Translations under genes and position numbers: made by a program
Part shown: positions 12,633 to 39,703 of the stretch, piece after piece
Numbering within the stretch: the stretch's first letter is position 1
How the letters are laid out: every line of letters begins with the position of its first letter
NCBI RefSeq assembly: GCF_025384765.1
Contig: NZ_VHLL01000003.1
Location: 124,001-188,000 of the forward strand
Direction of reading: 5' to 3'
DNA: 64,000 bases
DNA from: Methanoculleus formosensis
GTDB lineage: Archaea > Halobacteriota > Methanomicrobia > Methanomicrobiales > Methanoculleaceae
The notes under the pieces: model-generated
Databases searched by the model: none
Told to the model about the DNA's origin: nothing
The model's input: the letters and a program-made list of their open reading frames with translations, nothing else

Positions 12633-13040
12633 ATGAGTTTTGAAGAACTGGAGCACACCGCCGACGTCCTTATGCGGGTGCGGGGCGCGGACCTGACCGA
12701 ACTCTTTGCCGAGGCGGGGCGCGCGATGTTCCATGTGATGTACGGCCCCTGCGAGGATCGGGGTATCGAGCGGAGGATCGAGATCGAGGCGGAGAACCTT
12801 GAATCGCTTCTCATCGACTACCTCTCGGAACTGCTCTTCGTCACCGAGGTCGAGAACACCGTCTTCTGCACCTTCGACGTCGATCTCCGGGGCACCCGGC
12901 TCTCCGCCCACCTCAGGGGCGAGCTGTTCGACCCCGCGCGGCACTCGGCGGGAGCGCTCATCAAGGGCATATCCTACTTCGGGCTCGAAATCGTTAAAGA
13001 AGAAGAGGGTTACGTGGTGGAGATCATCTTCGATATCTGA
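12633..13040 (+). CDS. Archease (RtcB activator)
   Basis: The 135-residue sequence starts MSFEELEHTADVLMRVRGADL, with the conserved HTAD signature, and contains IEIEAENLESLLIDYLSELLF and the terminal IKGISYFGLEIVKEEEGYVVEIIFDI. The acidic metal site is formed by the HTAD aspartate and the C-terminal aspartate. Archease promotes guanylylation and multiple turnover of the RNA ligase RtcB. The rtcB gene abuts it directly, a typical archaeal arrangement. Confidence 0.95.
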   Translation: MSFEELEHTADVLMRVRGADLTELFAEAGRAMFHVMYGPCEDRGIERRIEIEAENLESLLIDYLSELLFVTEVENTVFCTFDVDLRGTRLSAHLRGELFDPARHSAGALIKGISYFGLEIVKEEEGYVVEIIFDI

Positions 13041-14486
13041 GTGATTGCCATGCTTACCGGAATCAATAAGATCGGGGATCTCGAATGGGAGGTTCCTATC
13101 GGATACGTCCCCGAGATGCGGGTACCCGGGCGATTCTTCCTATCCCGGGAGTTGGCGGAGACGCTCGAAGAGGGAGCCGTCCGCCAGCTCGCGAATGTCG
13201 CAACGCTTCCCGGGATCGTGAAGCACTCGCTTGCCATGCCCGACATCCACTGGGGATACGGGTTTCCCATCGGCGGCGTCGCCGCGTTCGATATGACCGA
13301 AGGGGTCATCTCCCCCGGCGGGGTCGGGTTCGACATCAACTGCGGCGTCCGGCTGATCACGACGCCGCTCACCGAGGCCGATCTCGCCGGCAAGAAACGT
13401 GAGGTGATCGAGCGGCTCTTTGCCGCCGTGCCGACCGGCGTCGGAGGAAAGAGCAACCTGCGGGTCTCGAACAAGGATCTCACCGCGGTCATGGTCGACG
13501 GCGCCCGGTGGGCGGTCGAGCGCGGGCTCGGCATCGAGGCCGACCTCGTCCGGTGCGAGGGCGAGGGAGCGATGCCGGGTGCCGACCCCGGCGCGGTCAG
13601 CGCCAAAGCGCGCCAGCGGGGTTTGCCGCAGCTCGGGACGCTCGGCGCCGGCAACCACTTTCTGGAGATCCAGGTGGCGAGGGAGATCGTCGACCCCGAA
13701 GCGGCAAAGACCTTCGGGATCGCCGAAGGACAGGTCTGCTTCATGGTGCACTGCGGCTCGCGCGGCCTCGGCCACCAGGTCGCGACCGACCACCTGCGGA
13801 CGCTTGAAAGCGCGGCCGCGAAGTACGGGGTGCGCCTCCCCGACCGGCAGCTCGCCTGCGCCCCCGTCGACTCCCCGGAAGGCCGCGCCTACTACGGGGG
13901 CATGGTCTCGGCTGCAAACTACGCCTGGGCAAACCGGCAGGTCATCATGCACGAAGCGAGGAAGGTCTTCGCAGAGGTCTTCGGGATCGAGTACGACGAG
14001 ATGCGGCTCATCTACGACGTCGCGCACAACGTCGCGAAGTTCGAGCGCCACGACGTCGACGGTGTCTTGACGGAGGTCTGCGTCCACCGTAAAGGCGCGA
14101 CGCGGGCGTTCGGCCCGGGCGTCCCCGGCATCCCCCGCGAGTATGCCGCGGTCGGGCAACCGGTGATCATCCCGGGGAGCATGGGGACGTCATCCTACCT
14201 CCTCCACGGCACGAAGGCCGCGATGGAGAAGACGTGGGGGAGCACCTGCCACGGCGCGGGGAGGGTGCTCAGCCGGTCGAAAGCGAAGAAGGAGGTCAAG
14301 GGCCGGGAACTCCGGGAGCAGCTCGCAGGAGCAGGCATCCTGGTGCGCGCCCACAGTGACTCCGTCCTCGCCGAGGAGGCCCCTGATGTCTACAAGCCAA
14401 GCGGGGAGGTTGTCCGCGTCGTGCACGAGGCAGGCCTCTCGAAGATCGTTGCAAGGCTCGACCCGCTCGGGGTGATCAAGGGGTGA
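13041..14486 (+). CDS. rtcB: RNA-splicing ligase RtcB
   Basis: This protein joins 2',3'-cyclic phosphate and 5'-OH RNA ends, and in archaea it completes tRNA splicing. Visible motifs are GVGFDINCGVRL (manganese-binding Cys), GTLGAGNHFLEIQ, HCGSRGLGHQV, and CHGAGRVLSRSKA with the guanylylated His near residue 404. No intein is present, unlike some archaeal RtcB genes. The frame opens with GTG at 13041 directly after the archease stop. ATG at 13050 (MLTGINKIGDLEWEVP) is an equally likely start. Its client is present in this window: the intron-containing tRNA-Met at 22590. Confidence 0.96.
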   Translation: MIAMLTGINKIGDLEWEVPIGYVPEMRVPGRFFLSRELAETLEEGAVRQLANVATLPGIVKHSLAMPDIHWGYGFPIGGVAAFDMTEGVISPGGVGFDINCGVRLITTPLTEADLAGKKREVIERLFAAVPTGVGGKSNLRVSNKDLTAVMVDGARWAVERGLGIEADLVRCEGEGAMPGADPGAVSAKARQRGLPQLGTLGAGNHFLEIQVAREIVDPEAAKTFGIAEGQVCFMVHCGSRGLGHQVATDHLRTLESAAAKYGVRLPDRQLACAPVDSPEGRAYYGGMVSAANYAWANRQVIMHEARKVFAEVFGIEYDEMRLIYDVAHNVAKFERHDVDGVLTEVCVHRKGATRAFGPGVPGIPREYAAVGQPVIIPGSMGTSSYLLHGTKAAMEKTWGSTCHGAGRVLSRSKAKKEVKGRELREQLAGAGILVRAHSDSVLAEEAPDVYKPSGEVVRVVHEAGLSKIVARLDPLGVIKG

Positions 14487-15061
14487 CCGGCAGGACAGGG
14501 CTGCTCTGGGACAACCCCCTGATCTTCTCACGCCTCATCGAGGACTGCGGCGGCGCTTGCGAGTCGGTCAACCCGAACATGCTCGCATCTCCCTTCTGGC
14601 GCGGGAGGTTTGGTGCGCTCATCATACCGACGGGGTTTGCGAACCCGGCCTATTCGAACCTTCTCCCTGCTCTCCGGGCTGCAGAAGGGCGTATCCGGCG
14701 GTTTATCGAGAATGGCGGGCGGCTGCTGGTCTTCGGCGCGGGGTGCTGCCGTGAGGACGCCTACGACTGGCTCCCGTTCCCGGTGACCTATGCGTTCGGC
14801 TACGGGCCGCGTGCTGTCCGGTTCACCCGGGAGGGCCCCTTCAACTCCCTCTTTTCGGGGTATGACCTCGACGCCGTCGAGTGCGACGGCTCGTTCCCGT
14901 CGCACGGCGGCGAGACGCTTGCCGCCACCCCCGATGGCGAGGCGCTTCTTATCCAGAAGTCGCTCGGCGACGGAATGGTCCTGGTCACCAGCATCCATGA
15001 GTACCCGTCACGCGAATTCTTGAAGGAGTTCTCCTGCGGAGATAGGGAAACATTATTTTAG
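14483..15061 (+). CDS. GATase1-like/BPL_N-type Rossmann-fold protein, function unknown
   Basis: The GTG start overlaps the rtcB stop (GTGA), so the gene is coupled to rtcB. The 192-residue product looks like a class I glutamine amidotransferase-like or biotin-ligase N-terminal-type alpha/beta domain: GALIIPTGFANP, RRFIENGGRLLVFGAGC, and later MVLVTSIHEYPS. The cysteine in FGAGCC sits where such proteins have a nucleophile elbow, but I see no clear catalytic His-Glu pair. The family is conserved in methanogens and no function is assigned. Confidence 0.7.
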   Translation: MTGRTGLLWDNPLIFSRLIEDCGGACESVNPNMLASPFWRGRFGALIIPTGFANPAYSNLLPALRAAEGRIRRFIENGGRLLVFGAGCCREDAYDWLPFPVTYAFGYGPRAVRFTREGPFNSLFSGYDLDAVECDGSFPSHGGETLAATPDGEALLIQKSLGDGMVLVTSIHEYPSREFLKEFSCGDRETLF

Positions 15062-15071
15062 ATAAAACCTG

Positions 15072-15515
15072 ATGAACAGTATGGATACGGCCATGAATCA
15101 ATACGTCGTCTCTGCGTCTTCGAGCGCGCGCGATCTCATCCCGATCGTGGTATGTATTCACGATCTGCTTGGTCGGCTGCCCGTTACGGCACGGTCCCGC
15201 GAACACCCCGGGGTCAGGGTCGAGGACGGGGAGGTGATCGACGAGGCCTATACCGGTCCGATCCTCGAGGAGGTCCTGGCGGAGAACGCCACATTGAGGG
15301 TCAGGCCCCCGAGCGGCCCATACAAAGGCATCCCGGTGGTGGTGGCGCCGGTGAGGGACGAAGAGGGCAACGCAATCTGCGCAATCGGCATCGTCGATCA
15401 GACCGGCATCTTTGATCTGGCGGGTTTTATGGAGCAGAGCACGGTGATCCGGAGGCAGGTCTGCGGCGAGGACCCGTGTCCGCTCCCGACCGAGTCGCCT
15501 GCAGCGAAAAGGTAA
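15072..15515 (+). CDS. DUF2111 methanogen protein
   Basis: This protein of 147 residues resembles the methanogen-specific DUF2111 family. It shows SSSARDLIPIVVCIHDLLGRLPVTARS, GPILEEVLAENATLRVRPPSGPYKGIPVVVAPVRD and CAIGIVDQTGIFDL, a PAS/GAF-like pattern that suggests a small ligand-sensing domain. It has no DNA-binding or membrane part. Its TAA stop overlaps the ATG of birA (TAATG), so it is translated together with the biotin ligase. This raises the possibility of a sensor role in the same circuit, which is inference only. Confidence 0.85.
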   Translation: MNSMDTAMNQYVVSASSSARDLIPIVVCIHDLLGRLPVTARSREHPGVRVEDGEVIDEAYTGPILEEVLAENATLRVRPPSGPYKGIPVVVAPVRDEEGNAICAIGIVDQTGIFDLAGFMEQSTVIRRQVCGEDPCPLPTESPAAKR

Positions 15516-33495: not shown

Positions 33496-33568
33496 GCCCC
33501 AGTGGCTTAGCTGGCAGAGCGGCTGACTTGTAATCAGCAGGTCCCGAGTTCAAATCTCGGCTGGGGCT
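33496..33568 (+). tRNA. tRNA-Thr(TGT)
   Basis: Acceptor stem GCCCCAG pairs with CTGGGGC and the discriminator is T. The anticodon stem-loop is GCTGA-CTTGTAA-TCAGC with anticodon TGT, and the T arm is CCGAG-TTCAAAT-CTCGG. There is no intron. It is the left boundary of the second accessory island. Confidence 0.95.
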
Positions 33569-33631
33569 TTCGCAATTTTGGTTCAAATCCCTTAGAAAAT
33601 GCTTATATCCCCATTGTGTGACCCCTCAATC

Positions 33632-33790
33632 ATGAGGACTACCAGCGACCCCATCGCGCCCGCGCGCGGTTTCCACCACGTCAAGATCACCTATGTAGAC
33701 CGCTCGATTCAAAAAAACAGTTGCAGAGAACCGGATCGATCCGGATGATAGCAATCTCATATGCGATTCTGTTGTAGAACTTCAGGCATG
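33632..33790 (+). pseudogene. Probable site-specific integrase remnant next to tRNA-Thr
   Basis: From ATG 33632, 26 bases after a TATA box GCTTATATC (33600-33608), the frame reads RGFHHVKITYVDRSIQK. A run of seven A then shifts to a second frame reading TVAENRIDPDDSNLICDSVVELQA. Together they resemble the N-terminal SAM-like domain of archaeal tyrosine recombinases (basic helix, then an 'I-x-P-D-D-A-x-L-I' type motif). Stops follow and the catalytic core is missing. The identity is inferred from family resemblance and from the tRNA-proximal position. Confidence 0.5.
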
Positions 33791-34128
33791 AAGAATACTT
33801 GAAGTTGCAAAAGGGCTTGGAAGATAACCGTTTTGGGGTCAGCCACTTAATAAAAAACTTGATGACCGCTCAGCTCATGGTGATCAGTCAGTCTATGGCG
33901 CTGGAGGATCTCGCGGCGGAAAAGTGCGCGTGGCGGTCCTCTGTGACCTACTCTGGAAAGGTGAGCGGATCGCGTTATGGGGGTAAAGTAGCATTTATAC
34001 CTGCTCTTACTTCAAACAGTGAAAGTTGTTCTACTATCCTTTGTGTCTTGGGATACTACTCATTACTTTGGGTGGAGAGTTATTCGGAACCGTCTGTTGA
34101 CGGTTTTGGGATGATCTCAAAAAATGTC
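33791..34128. other. AT-rich decayed stretch without a credible gene
   Basis: A plus-strand frame covers 33799-34191 but overlaps the nuclease-like gene on the other strand, has no ribosome site and encodes a sequence without recognisable pattern. A segment near 33840-33985 in another frame reads like a protein fragment (KKLDDRSAHGDQSVYGAGG and VRVAVLCDLLWKGERIALWG). I take the stretch to be scrambled remains of island genes. Confidence 0.4.
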
Positions 34129-34566
34129 TTATTTTTTAATTATTGCATATCTTTTTGGGTCCATAAGGTTGATTCGATCTCTACGCCGTGAAATATCCAT
34201 ACGTAAGTGCTGAAAATGATTTGTATCCGTATTTCCAACAAGAACAATTATAATGTCCGAATACTCTCTTTCGTAGTTATTGATTTGGCCGGTTAGCCTG
34301 TCAACCATCTCTTTTGACTTAAGGTTTCTTTTAAGCTCAATGCCGATTCTGCGATTAACTTCTAAATCACAAAGTCCCCTTCCGGCCTCCTTTCTAACGA
34401 TCACAGATTGGTTGATGAGGCTCATCGGATCGGGTCGATTTAATACTTTAAGAAGATACCCTTGTAAATCGTCCCGATACTTCGGTTCACTGGTGTATTC
34501 TGCTGAAGGTTTCCACCTATTTATTGCTTCAACAACATTATCATAGAGCGGATCGATGCCTATCAT
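34129..34566 (-). CDS. PD-(D/E)XK nuclease-like protein
   Basis: The 145-residue protein has an N-terminal helical part (DPLYDNVVEAINRWKPS, KYRDDLQGYLLKVL) and a core matching the PD-(D/E)XK pattern: CDLEVNRRIGIELKRNL, with Asp67, Glu77 and Lys79. A strand DIIIVLVGN follows. This is the fold of many restriction and defence nucleases. The gene is markedly AT-rich and lies third in a minus-strand group after the OGG-like and YaaA/HEAT-like genes, with a gap of about 150 bases. It is short but complete for a single-domain nuclease. Activity is inferred from the motif only. Confidence 0.6.
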   Translation of the reverse strand: MIGIDPLYDNVVEAINRWKPSAEYTSEPKYRDDLQGYLLKVLNRPDPMSLINQSVIVRKEAGRGLCDLEVNRRIGIELKRNLKSKEMVDRLTGQINNYEREYSDIIIVLVGNTDTNHFQHLRMDISRRRDRINLMDPKRYAIIKK

Positions 34567-34713
34567 ACTAGATACTCATGTATCCCATAAATAAACCTTC
34601 CGAGATCCAATCCCACATATCCTAAGTCAATCACTATATGGCGCTCATAGTTGCCCTAATGCGCCTTAAGGCTCCATAAATTACCTAGAATCTCGATGAT
34701 GCTCTCCCGAAAG

Positions 34714-35532
34714 TCAGGCATGATGTTGTTCAACCCACCGGCGCTCCCCAAGCATGAACAGAACCATCTCGACGTGGTAGAGTGCCCATCCTTCCCCATC
34801 ATCGATAGCGTATCGCGGCGCCGGAAAAGACTGAGCGTTCAACGCCGATGCTACCTCGCGCAGCAATAAACTCGCCCGAACAAACCATTGCGGCGCGTAC
34901 CGGTCATTCCACATATTGCCGAACAAACTCTTCCTGCCAATGGCTTTGCTCACCGGCACTGCGAAGGTGATATGATCCCGTATTCGGTCAAAGACTGCTG
35001 CATTCTCATTTCGGAAGGCAAAACTAAACTGATTCAGCGCATACGCAACCCGTGAGTCGTATATCGTCCACGCCCATGGATCTGAGAGGTAGTACACCTT
35101 CGATGCCGTGGCGATCCGCCGTCCGAAGATGTTCTGACAATCAATGCTGTCAGCATCCCTGCAAGATGAGAGGATCTCGATCGTGGAGAAGATCCGGCCC
35201 ACATCGCTCTCGGATACCGGAGCGTTGATCCCTCCCCAACCTGCGATGGCGTTACAGACCTCGCTCTTCAGCCGGGCGGCATCCCGGTCGCTTGATTCCC
35301 GGGCGCGAGTGACAGCGTCATGAAAGCGCGTCCGGGCTGCTATCCCTTCTCTGCAACCCGCTCTCCCTCGCGGCCATTCGTATGCCTCAAAGTGTTCTTG
35401 CCAGCCCCATCTACTCCGGATACGCTCGTGCTCAATGGTGCGGACGATGTACTGCACGAACGCTTTCATTGCCAGCGACCTGAAATCTGACGTGACGATC
35501 TTCGCAGGTGGGGTGGCAGGGGGAGCAGGCAT
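34714..35532 (-). CDS. Unknown island protein, possible OGG/HhH-type DNA glycosylase fold
   Basis: The ATG at 35532 overlaps the TGA of the preceding gene (TGATG), so it is translationally coupled. The 272-residue product is mostly helical. The segment IATASKVYYLSDPWAWTIYDSRVAYAL (residues 141-166) resembles the region of OGG-fold proteins in which a 'K-x-L-x-F-x-P-x-x-x-P-I-Y-D-S-R' pattern carries the active-site Lys and Asp (here Lys145 and Asp159). This is a weak, remembered resemblance, and the protein may be unrelated. It has no membrane segment. Together with its neighbours it could handle modified or foreign DNA. Confidence 0.5.
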   Translation of the reverse strand: MPAPPATPPAKIVTSDFRSLAMKAFVQYIVRTIEHERIRSRWGWQEHFEAYEWPRGRAGCREGIAARTRFHDAVTRARESSDRDAARLKSEVCNAIAGWGGINAPVSESDVGRIFSTIEILSSCRDADSIDCQNIFGRRIATASKVYYLSDPWAWTIYDSRVAYALNQFSFAFRNENAAVFDRIRDHITFAVPVSKAIGRKSLFGNMWNDRYAPQWFVRASLLLREVASALNAQSFPAPRYAIDDGEGWALYHVEMVLFMLGERRWVEQHHA

Positions 35533-37478
35533 CAGATACACCCCAGCTGCTCACACGCACACCTGATTCTGTTTTTGACCTCCCAGTTTGTTTCTATGTC
35601 GTGCCTCTCCATGAGATACTTGCATGCGCACCTACTCCCCAATTTGCCGAGCGAAACGGCAGCAAAGCCACGAACCAGAAAGTCTGGATCTGAAAGTGCA
35701 TCCGCGAGTTGCTCTACTACATCGTGACCACCGGTTCTGCCCAAGGCAAGGATGGCGTCGAGACGCTCATACCTGTCACCACACCGTGCGTCCGTGAGAA
35801 GCGAGCTGTGATCCTTCCGATGCTCGGTGTAGAGGAGCCCGATGACCGTATTGAGATGCATAAGGATCGTCTTCCGCTCTTTGAGAAGATCCTCAAGCGT
35901 GTACGTCCCGGTGTGCGTGGCCTTTCCCCGATGACCGGAGAAGTATTCGCATACCGTCTCAATCTGAACGTAGTCCGCATCAAACTCCCGATCAATAAAG
36001 GCAAGGGCGTCAGTGAGGATATCGGCGAAGAAATCCGGAACAAAAGGCTCACTGGCGCCCTTTTGTAGGTTTTCCCGAAGGTATTCCCACTCGCCCAGGT
36101 TGATCTGTTTGATCTTCTCCTCTTCAGCCCACAGAATCTTTTTCAGCTGTTTGGGGAGATCTCCGAATGTGCAACCCTCGAATCGCCACGCTTCGTTGGC
36201 ATATTTTGAAAATATATATGCACGCAGCCTCCGGGCGACTTCGTAATGCAACATCTTCTCAAGCCCTTTGGCATACCCGAGCCAGATTGATGAGCCTGCA
36301 TCGGCGTAGGCTTTTGGCGAACGGTAAAGGGCAACCAGCAGATCTTCAGCGTAGGCCAATTGTACTCTGACATCCCCATCCGGTATCGTGTCATGGTGCA
36401 ACACGCCCCAATCTTCGGGCAAGGGGCGCTTCTCCGCTTTATCGGCCCTGAAGCACCGGTCGCTGAAGATCACATCCCCGCATTCGGTGCCGGGTTGAAT
36501 CCGGAAGACCTGATCCTCTGACAGATCTAAAAAGGTATTCCCGACGAATTTCCCCAACGATCGGAGCCCTTTCTGTCCATCTGCGTGTTTGTACAAGCAA
36601 TGGAATACCTCTACGCTGCTGATCGTACTTTTCAGAGATTCCCAATCTATGACGTTGCGATAATCGTCGATGGACGTGAACTCGAATACGCGGCAGATGT
36701 TATTTTTCCGGATGTAATCAGCAAGTACGCGGGTCAGGCAACCGCTCAGTTTCCAGATTTCGAAGTTCGGGTTGTGCTCGTCGAGGATACAATCGTACAT
36801 CTGCACCGGTTCGAGAGGGCAGACAAGACCGTACAGGCCGGAGACGATGAGAACATGATGTCCCGATACGAGAAGTCGTTTCTTACCATCTTCACCAAGG
36901 CCGGTATAGAAGTCACCGTCATAGCGTTCGATTGCAGGCATGTAAAACGCTCCGGATTGCACGACAGCATTGCCAAAATCTTCGCCCGGAGCGAGAGCCT
37001 GATTGAAGTGGGAGTCTTTCAGGTCGGCGTTCTGCCATATCAGGCCGCCGTTTTTCAAACAGTGGATTACGTACTGACGAGAATGTACCAGAGAGTATCT
37101 GGTATCAGCTTCCAGATCATGGCCGAGGATTGAATCTTCCATCCGATACTCTGCAGGACTCGGACCTTCTTTTTTATGGAAGGAGTCACCAAGCAGGATC
37201 AGGATCGGGGAGCACGGCCGGTACCGCGAATTCAGTAATTTTTTGACATCCTCAATGGCGGTTGCGTACTCGCATGCTTCTACTTTTAGCCGGAGTGATC
37301 GGTTGTGTGGGTGGATGAAACCAACTGCACGATTGAGTGTATCGAATACCTTGGCATCAAGACGCGATATGCTGAAGATCTCTTCGATATCGTGAAGACT
37401 CACGATAAAATCATCCTGCTGAACTCGAAAGATAACTTTGTCATCGCGTATTAGGATTCTATCAACAAATTCAACCAT
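35532..37478 (-). CDS. Large island protein: YaaA/DUF6884-like domain plus C-terminal HEAT-like repeats
   Basis: The 648-residue protein has three visible parts. Residues 1-85 are of unknown type. Residues 90-290 resemble the YaaA/DUF6884 fold: SPILILLGDSFHKKEG, then LLVSGHHVLIVSGLYGLV, DCILDE and LADYIRK. A long helical part follows, and residues 570-620 look like HEAT repeats (RLDAILALGRTGGHDVVEQL, LVRGFAAVSLGKLG). ATG at 37478 is preferred over a TTG at 37544. YaaA relatives bind DNA or act in peroxide stress, and HEAT repeats are common scaffolds in defence proteins. It is first in the three-gene cassette and coupled to the next gene. Function is unknown. Confidence 0.6.
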   Translation of the reverse strand: MVEFVDRILIRDDKVIFRVQQDDFIVSLHDIEEIFSISRLDAKVFDTLNRAVGFIHPHNRSLRLKVEACEYATAIEDVKKLLNSRYRPCSPILILLGDSFHKKEGPSPAEYRMEDSILGHDLEADTRYSLVHSRQYVIHCLKNGGLIWQNADLKDSHFNQALAPGEDFGNAVVQSGAFYMPAIERYDGDFYTGLGEDGKKRLLVSGHHVLIVSGLYGLVCPLEPVQMYDCILDEHNPNFEIWKLSGCLTRVLADYIRKNNICRVFEFTSIDDYRNVIDWESLKSTISSVEVFHCLYKHADGQKGLRSLGKFVGNTFLDLSEDQVFRIQPGTECGDVIFSDRCFRADKAEKRPLPEDWGVLHHDTIPDGDVRVQLAYAEDLLVALYRSPKAYADAGSSIWLGYAKGLEKMLHYEVARRLRAYIFSKYANEAWRFEGCTFGDLPKQLKKILWAEEEKIKQINLGEWEYLRENLQKGASEPFVPDFFADILTDALAFIDREFDADYVQIETVCEYFSGHRGKATHTGTYTLEDLLKERKTILMHLNTVIGLLYTEHRKDHSSLLTDARCGDRYERLDAILALGRTGGHDVVEQLADALSDPDFLVRGFAAVSLGKLGSRCACKYLMERHDIETNWEVKNRIRCACEQLGCI

Positions 37479-37664
37479 CCGGCAACAATTAACCGTTAAC
37501 GTAATTGCTATTGAAAAGAGTTGCGATACAACATTTTCCGACAAGCACCGGGCGATTAGGATTGTAGCGTCGAATTTTTTGACCTGGCCTCAACACACCC
37601 GGACCCTCTCCGACCCCACCACCCCCACCCATCGTAGCCCTTTTCACCAGATCCAACCTTATAC

Positions 37665-38068
37665 ATGGCCTCGTACGTCCACCGGATAGAGGTACACTTT
37701 TCCCGCGATCCACACTTGCAGTCGCGTACCGAGAGGTTCCGCTCGCGGGGCTTCCCCCTGCGCGAACTGCACCTCGTCGATGTCTATACCATAGCGACCG
37801 CCCGGAGGGACTTCTCCCCCGAGGAACTCTTGCAGATCGGCGCGCAGCTCAGCAACCCCGTCGTCCAGCGGTACTCCGTAGACCGGCCGACCTTGACCAC
37901 GCGATCGAGGTCGGGTTCCTGCCCGGGGTCACCGACAACGCCGGGACGACGGCAAGGCAGACCATCGAGGACTACTTCGGGTTCCGGTTCGGCGAGAGGG
38001 AGGCGCTCCCCGGCACGCCTGAAGCGGTGCTCCTCGCCGGTGGCCGTGCAAAAGCGAAACCCGGATGA
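37665..38068 (+). pseudogene. purL N-terminal fragment, frameshifted and fused to a LolA-like lipoprotein gene fragment
   Basis: The first 75 residues (VHRIEVHFSRDP, LRELHLVDVYTI, FSPEELLQIGAQLSNPVVQ) match the N-terminus of FGAM synthase PurL. Near 37895 the frame shifts, and a second frame continues the same protein (LDHAIEVGFLPGVTDNAGTT, TIEDYF). It then runs into LPGTPEAVLLAGGRA, which is nearly identical to LPGTPEAVLLSDGREA in the lipoprotein gene at 46546-47637, and stops at 38068. So a purL duplicate was truncated and joined to a copy of an unrelated gene. It cannot make a working enzyme. Confidence 0.7.
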
Positions 38069-38148
38069 AGAAGCAGCAGGAAGACTCTGTTACGGGAGCA
38101 GTCTGATGGCCCATGCCGAGCGGTGCAAGGCGTGTAAACGGGCTCCTC

Positions 38149-39348
38149 TCACTCCAGGTACCGGACGATCGACTCAAGATCCCGGTACCCGACCAGGTGC
38201 CCTGCCGCCCGATGCTGCGGCTGGTCGCCCCCGTAGACCACGAACGAGCGATCCGGGGAGTTGCCGGAGAGCCCATTCCAGTAGGTGATCTCATTGAAGA
38301 AGTCGGAACTTGCCGTTCGGGCTGATTTGATCTCGACCGGAATGGGGTCCCACCCCTGGTACTCGATGATGCAGTCGATTTCGTGGCCGAGTTTGTCCCG
38401 CCAGAAGTAGAGGTTTGACTCTTTACCCCGGTTGAAGCGGAACTTCAGGAACTCCGTTATGATGAGCGATTCAAAGAGCCCCCCTTTTAAGGGGTGGTAA
38501 ACAAGGTCATCGGCGCTCTGGACCCCGGCCAGGTGTGCAGCAAGGCCGGGGTCTGTGAAGTAGAGTTTGGGCATCTTGATAAGCCGTTTGTTGAAGTTCT
38601 TGTGGTGGGGCCTGACCTGGACGATCAGCATCGCTGTCTCCAGGAGGGATAGCCATTCTTTCGCCGTGTTATGGGTGATGCCGCAGTCATGGGCGAGGGA
38701 CGAGTAGTTCACCACCTGGCCTGAACGGTAAGCGCACATCTTCATGAACGTCTGGAACGTCGAAAGGTTCTGCACCTGCTTGAGGAGGCGGAGATCGCGC
38801 TCGATGTAGGTCTGGATATACGACGAATAGAAGTCCGCCGGGTGAATGGCGCTACTGTATGGGCGGGGGAAGAGGCCGGCGTAGAGGAGGTCCTCGTAGC
38901 GTTCGATCGTGATCCCAGCACGGGCAAATTCCTCCATCGAGAGGGGGAGGAGTTTGACGATACCGACCCGGCCGGCGAGCGACTGAGATATCCGCTCCAT
39001 CATCAGGAAGTTCTGCGACCCGGTGAGAATGAACCGTCCCGGCCTCTGATTCGCATCGAGGACCCCCTGGAGGTACGAGAAGAGTTCCGGGACCCTCTGT
39101 ACCTCGTCGAGGATCGCCCCGGTCTTCTCGTACTGTGCGAGAAAACTGCGGGGGTCCTCCTCTGCGAAGGCGCGGGTATCGGGGTCTTCGAGCAAGACGT
39201 AGGGCAACTGCGGGAATATCGACCGGACGAGCGTCGTCTTTCCTGACTGGCGGGGGCCGACGACGGCGACTGCCGGGAAGCCGAGAGCGAGCGACCGGAT
39301 CTGTGCCTCTGCATCCCGCCGGATCATCCCCTGCATCCTCATGGACAT
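38149..39348 (-). CDS. AAA+ ATPase with DUF4143 C-terminal nuclease-like domain
   Basis: This 399-residue protein has Walker A VVGPRQSGKTTLVRSI (about residue 30), Walker B GAILDEVQRVPELFSYLQ, and sensor region FILTGSQNFLMM. The second half is DUF4143, with a winged-helix stretch (NYSSLAHDCGITHNTAKEWL) and a PD-(D/E)XK-like core EIDCIIEYQGWDPIPVEIKSA. Such proteins are frequent in archaea. Their function is unproven, and roles in DNA repair or element maintenance have been suggested. Met at 39348 is used, though Met at 39342 is close. A near-perfect palindrome covers the start codon, implying tight repression. It lies at the right end of the tRNA-Thr island. Confidence 0.85.
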   Translation of the reverse strand: MSMRMQGMIRRDAEAQIRSLALGFPAVAVVGPRQSGKTTLVRSIFPQLPYVLLEDPDTRAFAEEDPRSFLAQYEKTGAILDEVQRVPELFSYLQGVLDANQRPGRFILTGSQNFLMMERISQSLAGRVGIVKLLPLSMEEFARAGITIERYEDLLYAGLFPRPYSSAIHPADFYSSYIQTYIERDLRLLKQVQNLSTFQTFMKMCAYRSGQVVNYSSLAHDCGITHNTAKEWLSLLETAMLIVQVRPHHKNFNKRLIKMPKLYFTDPGLAAHLAGVQSADDLVYHPLKGGLFESLIITEFLKFRFNRGKESNLYFWRDKLGHEIDCIIEYQGWDPIPVEIKSARTASSDFFNEITYWNGLSGNSPDRSFVVYGGDQPQHRAAGHLVGYRDLESIVRYLE

Positions 39349-39375
39349 ATTGTAAATAGCATTTACAATTTGTCC
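39343..39375 (-). promoter_or_regulatory. 33-bp near-perfect palindrome over the ATPase start codon
   Basis: Left half GGACA-T-ATTGTAAAT (39343-39357) and right half ATTTACAAT-T-TGTCC (39361-39375) face each other around AGC. Fourteen of fifteen positions pair. It includes the ATG of the DUF4143 ATPase gene (39346-39348). On the minus strand a TATA box ATATTTATATGG (about 39375-39386) precedes it, so the palindrome spans the transcription start and is an obvious operator. Confidence 0.8.
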
Positions 39376-39703
39376 ATATAAATATTCCTGCGGAGCCGAC
39401 GAGGAGCGCCACCCGGGTGGATGAGAATACGCCCTAATTACCGTGTCTGGCCTTGGCGTTCAATGCCGGTGCTCTGAGTTCCCGCAACTGCCCCATCCTC
39501 TGGCCAGGGAAGGAGCGCTGTTTTTTTGACCAGCACGGGGTCAGGGCCGGCATCCGGAGCGCTCAATGAAACCTGCCAGTCTGCCGGGCAAGATTTCGCG
39601 GAAACTGAGGGCTTTTTTCGGGAAGTAACGATCATATTCGCTAATCCCTTTTCGACGCTCCCCGCAGGTCTGAGTATTCCTCTTAACCCTGAATACGACC
39701 CTT
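39376..39703. other. Intergenic region without a gene
   Basis: Apart from the minus-strand TATA box at its left end, I see no gene or strong repeat. The GC-rich open frames on both strands are proline- and arginine-rich shadows. An AT-richer patch at 39600-39650 has no recognisable signal. Confidence 0.5.

What the first reader, a model, noticed from the sequence alone, without database searches (positions are those of the whole stretch)
34129..37478. Three-gene cassette: YaaA/HEAT-like, OGG-like and PD-(D/E)XK-like proteins, a candidate new defence system
The genes are on one strand. The first two are coupled by TGATG, and the third follows about 150 bases later. They combine a YaaA/DUF6884-type domain with HEAT-like repeats, a protein with a possible DNA-glycosylase active-site pattern, and a nuclease-like protein. 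They lie in an island between an integrase remnant and broken genes, where defence systems typically occur. I know of no described system with this combination.
Basis: inference. Interest (0 to 1): 0.7.

Follow-up and report, generated by a model that had tools for sequence, protein, structure and literature searches.

The report
YaaA-HEPN sensor-toxin with glycosylase-like partner
A methanogen genome carries, at a tRNA site where foreign genes come and go, a two-gene module that pairs a protein joining a DNA-base-handling domain to a likely RNA-cutting toxin with a DNA-repair-like partner; relatives keep the base-handling part, often the partner, but swap the toxin, which looks like an undescribed modular antiviral system.

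Summary
The first two (p1, p2) overlap as TGATG and recur as a pair in a second species (91% identical, dN/dS about 0.25). p1 is more than YaaA+HEAT: between those lies an HEPN-like domain with an R-x4-H motif, the likely toxin. Homologues in about 20 Methanomicrobiales genomes keep the YaaA-like domain but swap the effector (HEPN, Schlafen AlbA_2, RelE/ParE). In one of two YaaA clades, 7 of 11 members have a glycosylase-like partner, adjacent or fused; in the other, 0 of 11. Several lie beside Druantia, type I or IV restriction, DrmD/MTase or CRISPR genes. p2 belongs to an unnamed family, also in bacteria, with weak but significant profile similarity to HhH-glycosylase-like proteins; Asp kept, catalytic Lys absent. 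p3 is a PD-(D/E)XK-like nuclease found elsewhere alone, so the 'trio' is not supported. The genes fill a variable tRNA-Thr/purL site; no integrase remnant was found. Best reading: a base-lesion/modified-base sensor coupled to interchangeable toxins, a candidate defence module related to but distinct from DpdC and PDC-M57. Function is inferred; AlphaFold models were too poor to help.

The parts
33496..33568 (+). tRNA-Thr (TGT) gene at the island edge
   Evidence: ARAGORN; conserved in seven relatives
33569..37600 (.). variable island between tRNA-Thr and a purL 5' fragment; holds p3, p2 and p1 here and other genes in related species
   Evidence: blastn against syntenic loci L128-L131; contents of the same interval in relatives
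34129..34566 (-). p3, 145-aa PD-(D/E)XK-like protein (D67...E77-x-K79); membership in the module not supported
   Evidence: no Pfam/PHROG/PDB family
34714..35541 (-). p2, 275 aa from GTG (272 aa from ATG at 35532), OGG/HhH-like family; Asp162 kept, catalytic Lys position not Lys
35532..37478 (-). p1, 648-aa fusion: N-terminal domain, YaaA-like domain, HEPN-like domain, HEAT repeats
36450..37241 (-). YaaA-like domain of p1 (res 80-343); D98-SFHK at the Cys-x3-Lys position, S213-GLYG motif
   Evidence: PF03883; family profile A1 375 bits; motif positions
35814..36380 (-). HEPN-like domain of p1 (res 367-555), R517-GKAT-H522
   Evidence: PADLOC TPR model C-terminus 1.2e-18; alignment of six domains, R-x4-H invariant
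35568..35786 (-). HEAT_2/PBS repeats of p1 (res 565-637)

Best explanation
p1 and p2 form a two-gene sensor-toxin module carried as island cargo at a tRNA-Thr site. The YaaA-like domain of p1, helped by the HhH/OGG-like p2, is proposed to recognise an abnormal base (modified, damaged or abasic) in invading nucleic acid, probably by flipping it out. That recognition releases the HEPN-like domain of p1, which cuts RNA and halts the cell or the infection; the HEAT repeats would serve as a scaffold or partner site. Shown: the co-conserved pair, the domain make-up, effector swapping in relatives, recurrence of glycosylase-like partners, defence neighbourhoods, the variable site. Inferred: base recognition, activation of HEPN, RNA cleavage, antiviral role. 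p3 is treated as a neighbour, not a component.
For: Pair conserved in a second species with purifying selection. The same kind of YaaA-like domain is fused to AlbA_2 (L060, L062, L116, L117), HEPN (L061, L064, L066) or RelE/ParE (L072, L073). A glycosylase-like protein is adjacent to or fused with the YaaA-like gene in L060, L062, L063, L069, L074 and L116; all five strong hits of that profile in 290 genomes are such loci. Tree: 7 of 11 with partner in one clade, 0 of 11 in the other. Defence neighbours: Druantia I (L063), type IV restriction (L060), type I RM (L069, L071), DrmD/MTase operon (L066), CRISPR and CARF (L074), NERD-UvrD candidate (L065). HEPN R-x4-H motif. YaaA-fold proteins act on bases in DNA: DpdC (PF03883) hydrolyses dPreQ0 (PMC12839542); YfjM (DUF6884) is reported among interactors of abasic and ribo lesions (PMC11701544).
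Against: No experiment. The close p1 orthologue L065 has no p2, so p2 is not obligatory. p2 is not the same subfamily as the other glycosylase-like partners: similarity only P = 2.8e-4 with the family profile and not significant for p2 alone. Bacterial p2 homologues stand alone, with no YaaA-like gene nearby. AlphaFold models poor; Foldseek found nothing. The p1 domain matches no Pfam HEPN model. Defence neighbourhoods were counted without a matched control.
Confidence: 0.5

Rival explanations
1. All three genes form one cassette: p1 senses, p2 excises or marks bases, p3 cuts the DNA at abasic or modified sites, as in base-excision restriction.
For: Same strand and same island; p3 has the D...ExK pattern.
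Against: p3 homologues are solitary in other genomes (L092-L097) and no YaaA-like gene is found in those loci; p3 has a lower GC (0.388 against 0.51-0.57) and starts about 150 bp away; the second p1-p2 locus ends before this position, so linkage is untested rather than disproved.
Confidence: 0.12
2. A DNA-damage response module rather than antiviral defence: YaaA-like and HhH-like proteins detect oxidative or abasic damage in the cell's own DNA, and HEPN slows translation.
For: E. coli YaaA is a peroxide-stress protein and YfjM is reported as a lesion interactor (PMC11701544); HhH proteins are mostly repair enzymes.
Against: Patchy distribution (20 of 232 genomes of the order), variable island site, effector swapping and neighbouring defence systems fit defence better.
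Confidence: 0.15
3. p1 is a single-protein abortive-infection or toxin system (HEPN controlled in cis), and p2 is an unrelated passenger whose glycosylase likeness is coincidental.
For: L065 has p1 without p2; 11 clade-B homologues have no partner; the p2 family is often solitary.
Against: Overlapping stop/start kept in two species, both genes under similar purifying selection; independent recurrence of glycosylase-like partners in the sister clade, including fusions.
Confidence: 0.2

Closest known systems
DpdC of the Dpd (7-deazaguanine) DNA modification-restriction system
   Same: YaaA-type domain (DUF328/PF03883) that acts on a modified base (PMC12839542); the distant stand-alone relative in L074 matches DpdC models (3.6e-5)
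   Different: No TGT (DpdA) or other Dpd gene adjacent; p1 itself does not hit DpdC models; p1 carries HEPN and HEAT
PADLOC candidate system PDC-M57 (A + B)
   Same: M57A matches the YaaA-like/DUF6884 domain of L074 (1.1e-6) and M57B the N-terminal (GIY-YIG-like) domain fused to a YaaA-like domain in L076 (2.5e-45)
   Different: p1 does not match M57A; the effector is HEPN, and the partner is glycosylase-like
Brig1/Brig3 anti-phage DNA glycosylases
   Same: Idea of glycosylases reading modified viral bases (PMC11078745, PMC13160076)
   Different: Those belong to the uracil-DNA-glycosylase superfamily and act directly; p2 is HhH-like, lacks the OGG lysine and accompanies a toxin fusion
HEPN effector proteins (Abi, Swt1-like and RM-associated)
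   Same: R-x4-H motif and position as C-terminal effector; HEPN domains in RM operons are described (PMC3710099)
   Different: No Pfam HEPN model is met by p1; fused to a YaaA-like domain, which that survey does not mention
DUF6884 (PF21818), e.g. B. subtilis YfjM
   Same: Same fold family as YaaA, conserved Lys and S-x-x-x-G type motif (PMC11701544)
   Different: Cys of C-x3-K is Asp in p1 (D98-SFHK); toxin fusion

Membership tests
YaaA domain family (PF03883) | score over Pfam gathering cut-off | tested here: met
   38.0 bits against 29.6
YaaA peroxide-stress protein (NCBIfam equivalog) | equivalog cut-off | tested here: not met
   25.7 bits against 278: related domain, not an orthologue of E. 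coli YaaA
DUF6884 (PF21818) | C-x3-K and LSAxxG motifs | tested here: not met
   p1 has D98-SFHK and S213-GLYG; no PF21818 hit for p1
HEPN superfamily | R-x4-6-H catalytic motif in a helical domain | tested here: met
   R517-GKAT-H522, invariant in six aligned domains
HEPN superfamily | match to a curated HEPN model or fold | tested here: inconclusive
   no Pfam HEPN model for p1; HEPN_Swt1 only 16.2 bits in the homologue L066, under its cut-off; fold model too poor
HhH/OGG DNA glycosylases | profile similarity to HhH-glycosylase-like proteins | tested here: inconclusive
   p2 family against L090/L091 P = 5.8e-5, over 26 columns at the motif only; against the L060-type partner P = 2.8e-4; p2 alone not significant; L090/L091 themselves were named by motif
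HhH/OGG DNA glycosylases | catalytic Asp and, for bifunctional enzymes, catalytic Lys | tested here: not met
   Asp162 kept in the whole p2 family; Lys position not Lys; at most monofunctional or binding-only
HhH/OGG DNA glycosylases | glycosylase activity | not testable with these tools
   needs biochemistry
PD-(D/E)XK nucleases (p3) | D...(E)xK motif conserved | tested here: met
   D67, E77, K79 positions conserved in L092-L097
PD-(D/E)XK nucleases (p3) | match to a known nuclease family | tested here: not met
   no Pfam, PHROG or PDB hit of note
Dpd system | DpdA/B/C and partner genes together | tested here: not met
   none in the island
PDC-M57 | M57A and M57B proteins | tested here: not met
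   p1 and p2 do not hit either model
Anti-phage defence system | protection against virus or plasmid | not testable with these tools
   no assay possible

The most novel reading that the evidence does not exclude
A previously undescribed archaeal family of modular immune proteins in which a pair of base-reading folds (YaaA-like plus HhH/OGG-like) acts as a reader of modified or damaged bases in viral nucleic acid and switches on exchangeable toxins (HEPN, Schlafen AlbA_2, RelE/ParE).
Probability: 0.35. Interest if true: 0.8.

Novelty: new variant of a known kind. Interest (0 to 1): 0.55.

Why it matters
If true, it would show that a repair-type reading of DNA bases can trigger an RNA- or translation-directed suicide response in archaea, linking YaaA/DpdC chemistry and glycosylase folds to abortive infection. 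It would give a role to a widespread but obscure domain (YaaA/DUF6884) and to an unnamed glycosylase-like family that also occurs in bacteria, and it makes clear predictions (HEPN mutants, modified-base dependence) that can be tested in laboratory hosts.

Tried and rejected
AlphaFold of p2 alone (pLDDT 35) and of p1 with four homologues (pLDDT 47); Foldseek of the latter gave no match. Direct p2-partner profile comparison without more homologues was not significant and p2 ranked only 52 of 244 in a decoy test; it became significant only with bacterial homologues. Linking G348 contig C264 (a p3-like gene near its end) to the p1-p2 contig: ends do not match, so rejected. Viral contigs, plasmids and phages gave no p2 or glycosylase-like partner relatives at normal thresholds; one plasmid hit at E = 0.5 proved to be a true family member. 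Direct repeats of the tRNA 3' end in the window: none. Integrase remnant: none found. Conserved surface-protein genes next to the L061-type loci were considered as partners and left aside as an unrelated neighbour pair.

Full report
What is there. The window comes from a genome whose same-genus relatives include named Methanoculleus records (genus inferred). Three minus-strand genes lie at 37478-35532 (p1, 648 aa), 35541-34714 (p2) and 34566-34129 (p3). p1's TGA and p2's ATG overlap as TGATG at 35534-35530. Pfam finds YaaA (res 177-291) and HEAT_2 repeats (565-637) in p1, both over the curated cut-offs, and nothing in p2 or p3.

A missed effector. Residues 367-555 of p1 match the C-terminus of a PADLOC 'TPR' model (1.2e-18) and the same kind of domain in TPR proteins of related genomes. 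An alignment of p1, its orthologue L065, the two-YaaA protein of L061 and three TPR proteins shows one invariant R-x4-H (RGKATH, RGRATH, RNKAVH, RNGAAH, RNDAFH), the HEPN RNase signature. Pfam HEPN models do not recognise p1, so HEPN is a motif- and context-based assignment.

The YaaA-like domain is a constant part with changing effectors. Homologues in the order (20 of 232 genomes) carry the same domain with HEPN (L061, L064, L070, L066, L067), Schlafen AlbA_2 (L060, L062, L063, L069, L068, L114-L117), or RelE/ParE-type toxins (L071, L072, L112, L073) (some effectors assigned by sequence likeness to the scanned members). A maximum-likelihood tree splits the family into two clades of 11 (99/96 support). 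The window protein, L111 and L065 are sister to an AlbA_2 set in the clade whose C-x3-K motif reads mostly DSFHK; the other clade reads CSxxK. HEPN and AlbA_2 both occur in both clades, so effectors have been exchanged. The tool warns that some long branches may join falsely.

The glycosylase-like partner. A second gene family sits next to or is fused with the YaaA-like domain in L060, L062, L063, L069, L116 and, with a distant stand-alone YaaA/DUF6884 protein, L074. In 290 genomes of the phylum its profile has five strong hits, all at such loci. It matches HhH-glycosylase-like proteins in L090/L091 (hhalign P = 7e-7). p2 is a different subfamily. It had no relatives in 295 genomes of the phylum sample, but a weak plasmid hit (Skermanella, E = 0.5) proved to be a real relative and led to others in Variovorax, Microvirga and Persicobacter. 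With these, the p2 family matches the L060-type partner at P = 2.8e-4 and L090/L091 at 5.8e-5. These P-values come from single pairwise comparisons, and the second alignment covers only 26 columns. The Asp of the 'YDSRV' motif (p2 D162) is kept throughout; the position of the glycosylase lysine, counted by register from known HhH enzymes (general knowledge), is not Lys. So p2 may be a monofunctional enzyme or only a binder. Counting p2, 7 of 11 clade members have a partner against 0 of 11 in the other clade (Fisher p = 0.004; rows are related, so this is only a guide). L114 lies at a contig end, so one of the four 'no partner' cases is uncertain; a profile search of that incomplete genome found none.

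The p1-p2 pair is maintained. L111 (another species of the genus) has both genes in the same overlap at 91.5% and 90.6% protein identity, dN/dS 0.25 and 0.24. L065, 72% identical in DNA, has p1 without p2. The pair is thus conserved but not obligatory.

p3 is probably a neighbour. Its homologues occur in 19 of 295 phylum genomes; in six loci examined they are single genes in unrelated settings, and none of those loci holds a YaaA-like gene. The D...GIELK motif is conserved, so a PD-(D/E)XK nuclease is likely. The second p1-p2 contig stops before this position, and the p3-like gene of that genome is on another contig whose end does not match, so linkage is untested.

Site. In seven relatives the radical-SAM gene and tRNA-Thr are conserved, and in four of them purL-homologous sequence follows after about 1-2 kb of other genes (GNAT, lipoprotein, membrane protein, possible nuclease; one shows a duplicated tRNA-Thr). 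Here the interval 33569-37600 holds p3, p2, p1 (GC 0.39-0.57 against 0.61). This is a variable cargo site. No integrase remnant was found.

Defence context. Loci of this family lie beside Druantia I (L063; DruE 2046 bits), a type IV restriction enzyme (L060), type I RM (L069, L071, and by gene likeness L030), within an overlapping DrmD helicase/methyltransferase operon (L066), a CRISPR array and CARF gene (L074), and a NERD-UvrD candidate (L065). No matched control was run.

Mechanism. DpdC, a PF03883 protein, hydrolyses dPreQ0 to dADG in the Dpd system (PMC12839542), and YfjM, a DUF6884 protein, is reported to interact with abasic and ribo lesions (PMC11701544). HhH proteins flip bases (general knowledge). 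HEPN, AlbA_2 and RelE/ParE are toxin or effector domains. The simplest joint reading is a base-reading sensor wired to exchangeable toxins. Whether the trigger is viral modification or damage is open. Brig1 and Brig3 show that glycosylases can serve as antiviral readers of modified bases, with a different fold (PMC11078745, PMC13160076).

Limits. Both AlphaFold models were poor and Foldseek was empty. The literature search covers open papers only; no described system with this combination was found. All functional claims are inference.

Noticed in passing
window 37600-38008: A 5' fragment of a purL-like gene (full length, about 980 aa, at this site in relatives L128 and L131) is left next to p1; an intact-length purL frame lies on another contig of the same genome (C10). 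A rearrangement seems to have broken the old copy in this lineage (also in L111).
   Followed up: partly
window 38054-39581: A DUF4143 AAA ATPase gene (PADLOC PDC-S01, 340 bits) is present here but absent in L111, where the flanking sequences are joined: a recent gain or loss.
   Followed up: partly
L066:412-10628: Operon of overlapping genes: DrmD-like helicase, DrmMI/type IIG-like methyltransferase ending in an AlbA_2-like domain, YaaA-HEPN, two unknown genes; looks like an undescribed restriction-type system.
   Followed up: partly
L061, L064, L070, L079: Proteins with two tandem YaaA/DUF6884-type domains plus HEPN, always beside a large NHL-repeat-like surface protein and a small secreted protein.
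   Followed up: no
L074:6794-8272 and 12673-15400: Glycosylase-like gene followed by a stand-alone DUF6884/YaaA gene, near a CARF gene and a CRISPR array of 40 or more repeats.
   Followed up: partly
L129:9292-10404: Two tRNA-Thr genes about 1 kb apart at the syntenic site, as expected from integration at the tRNA.
   Followed up: no
L090:4841-6178: HhH-glycosylase-like domain fused to a RadC-like domain next to a type I restriction-like gene.
   Followed up: no
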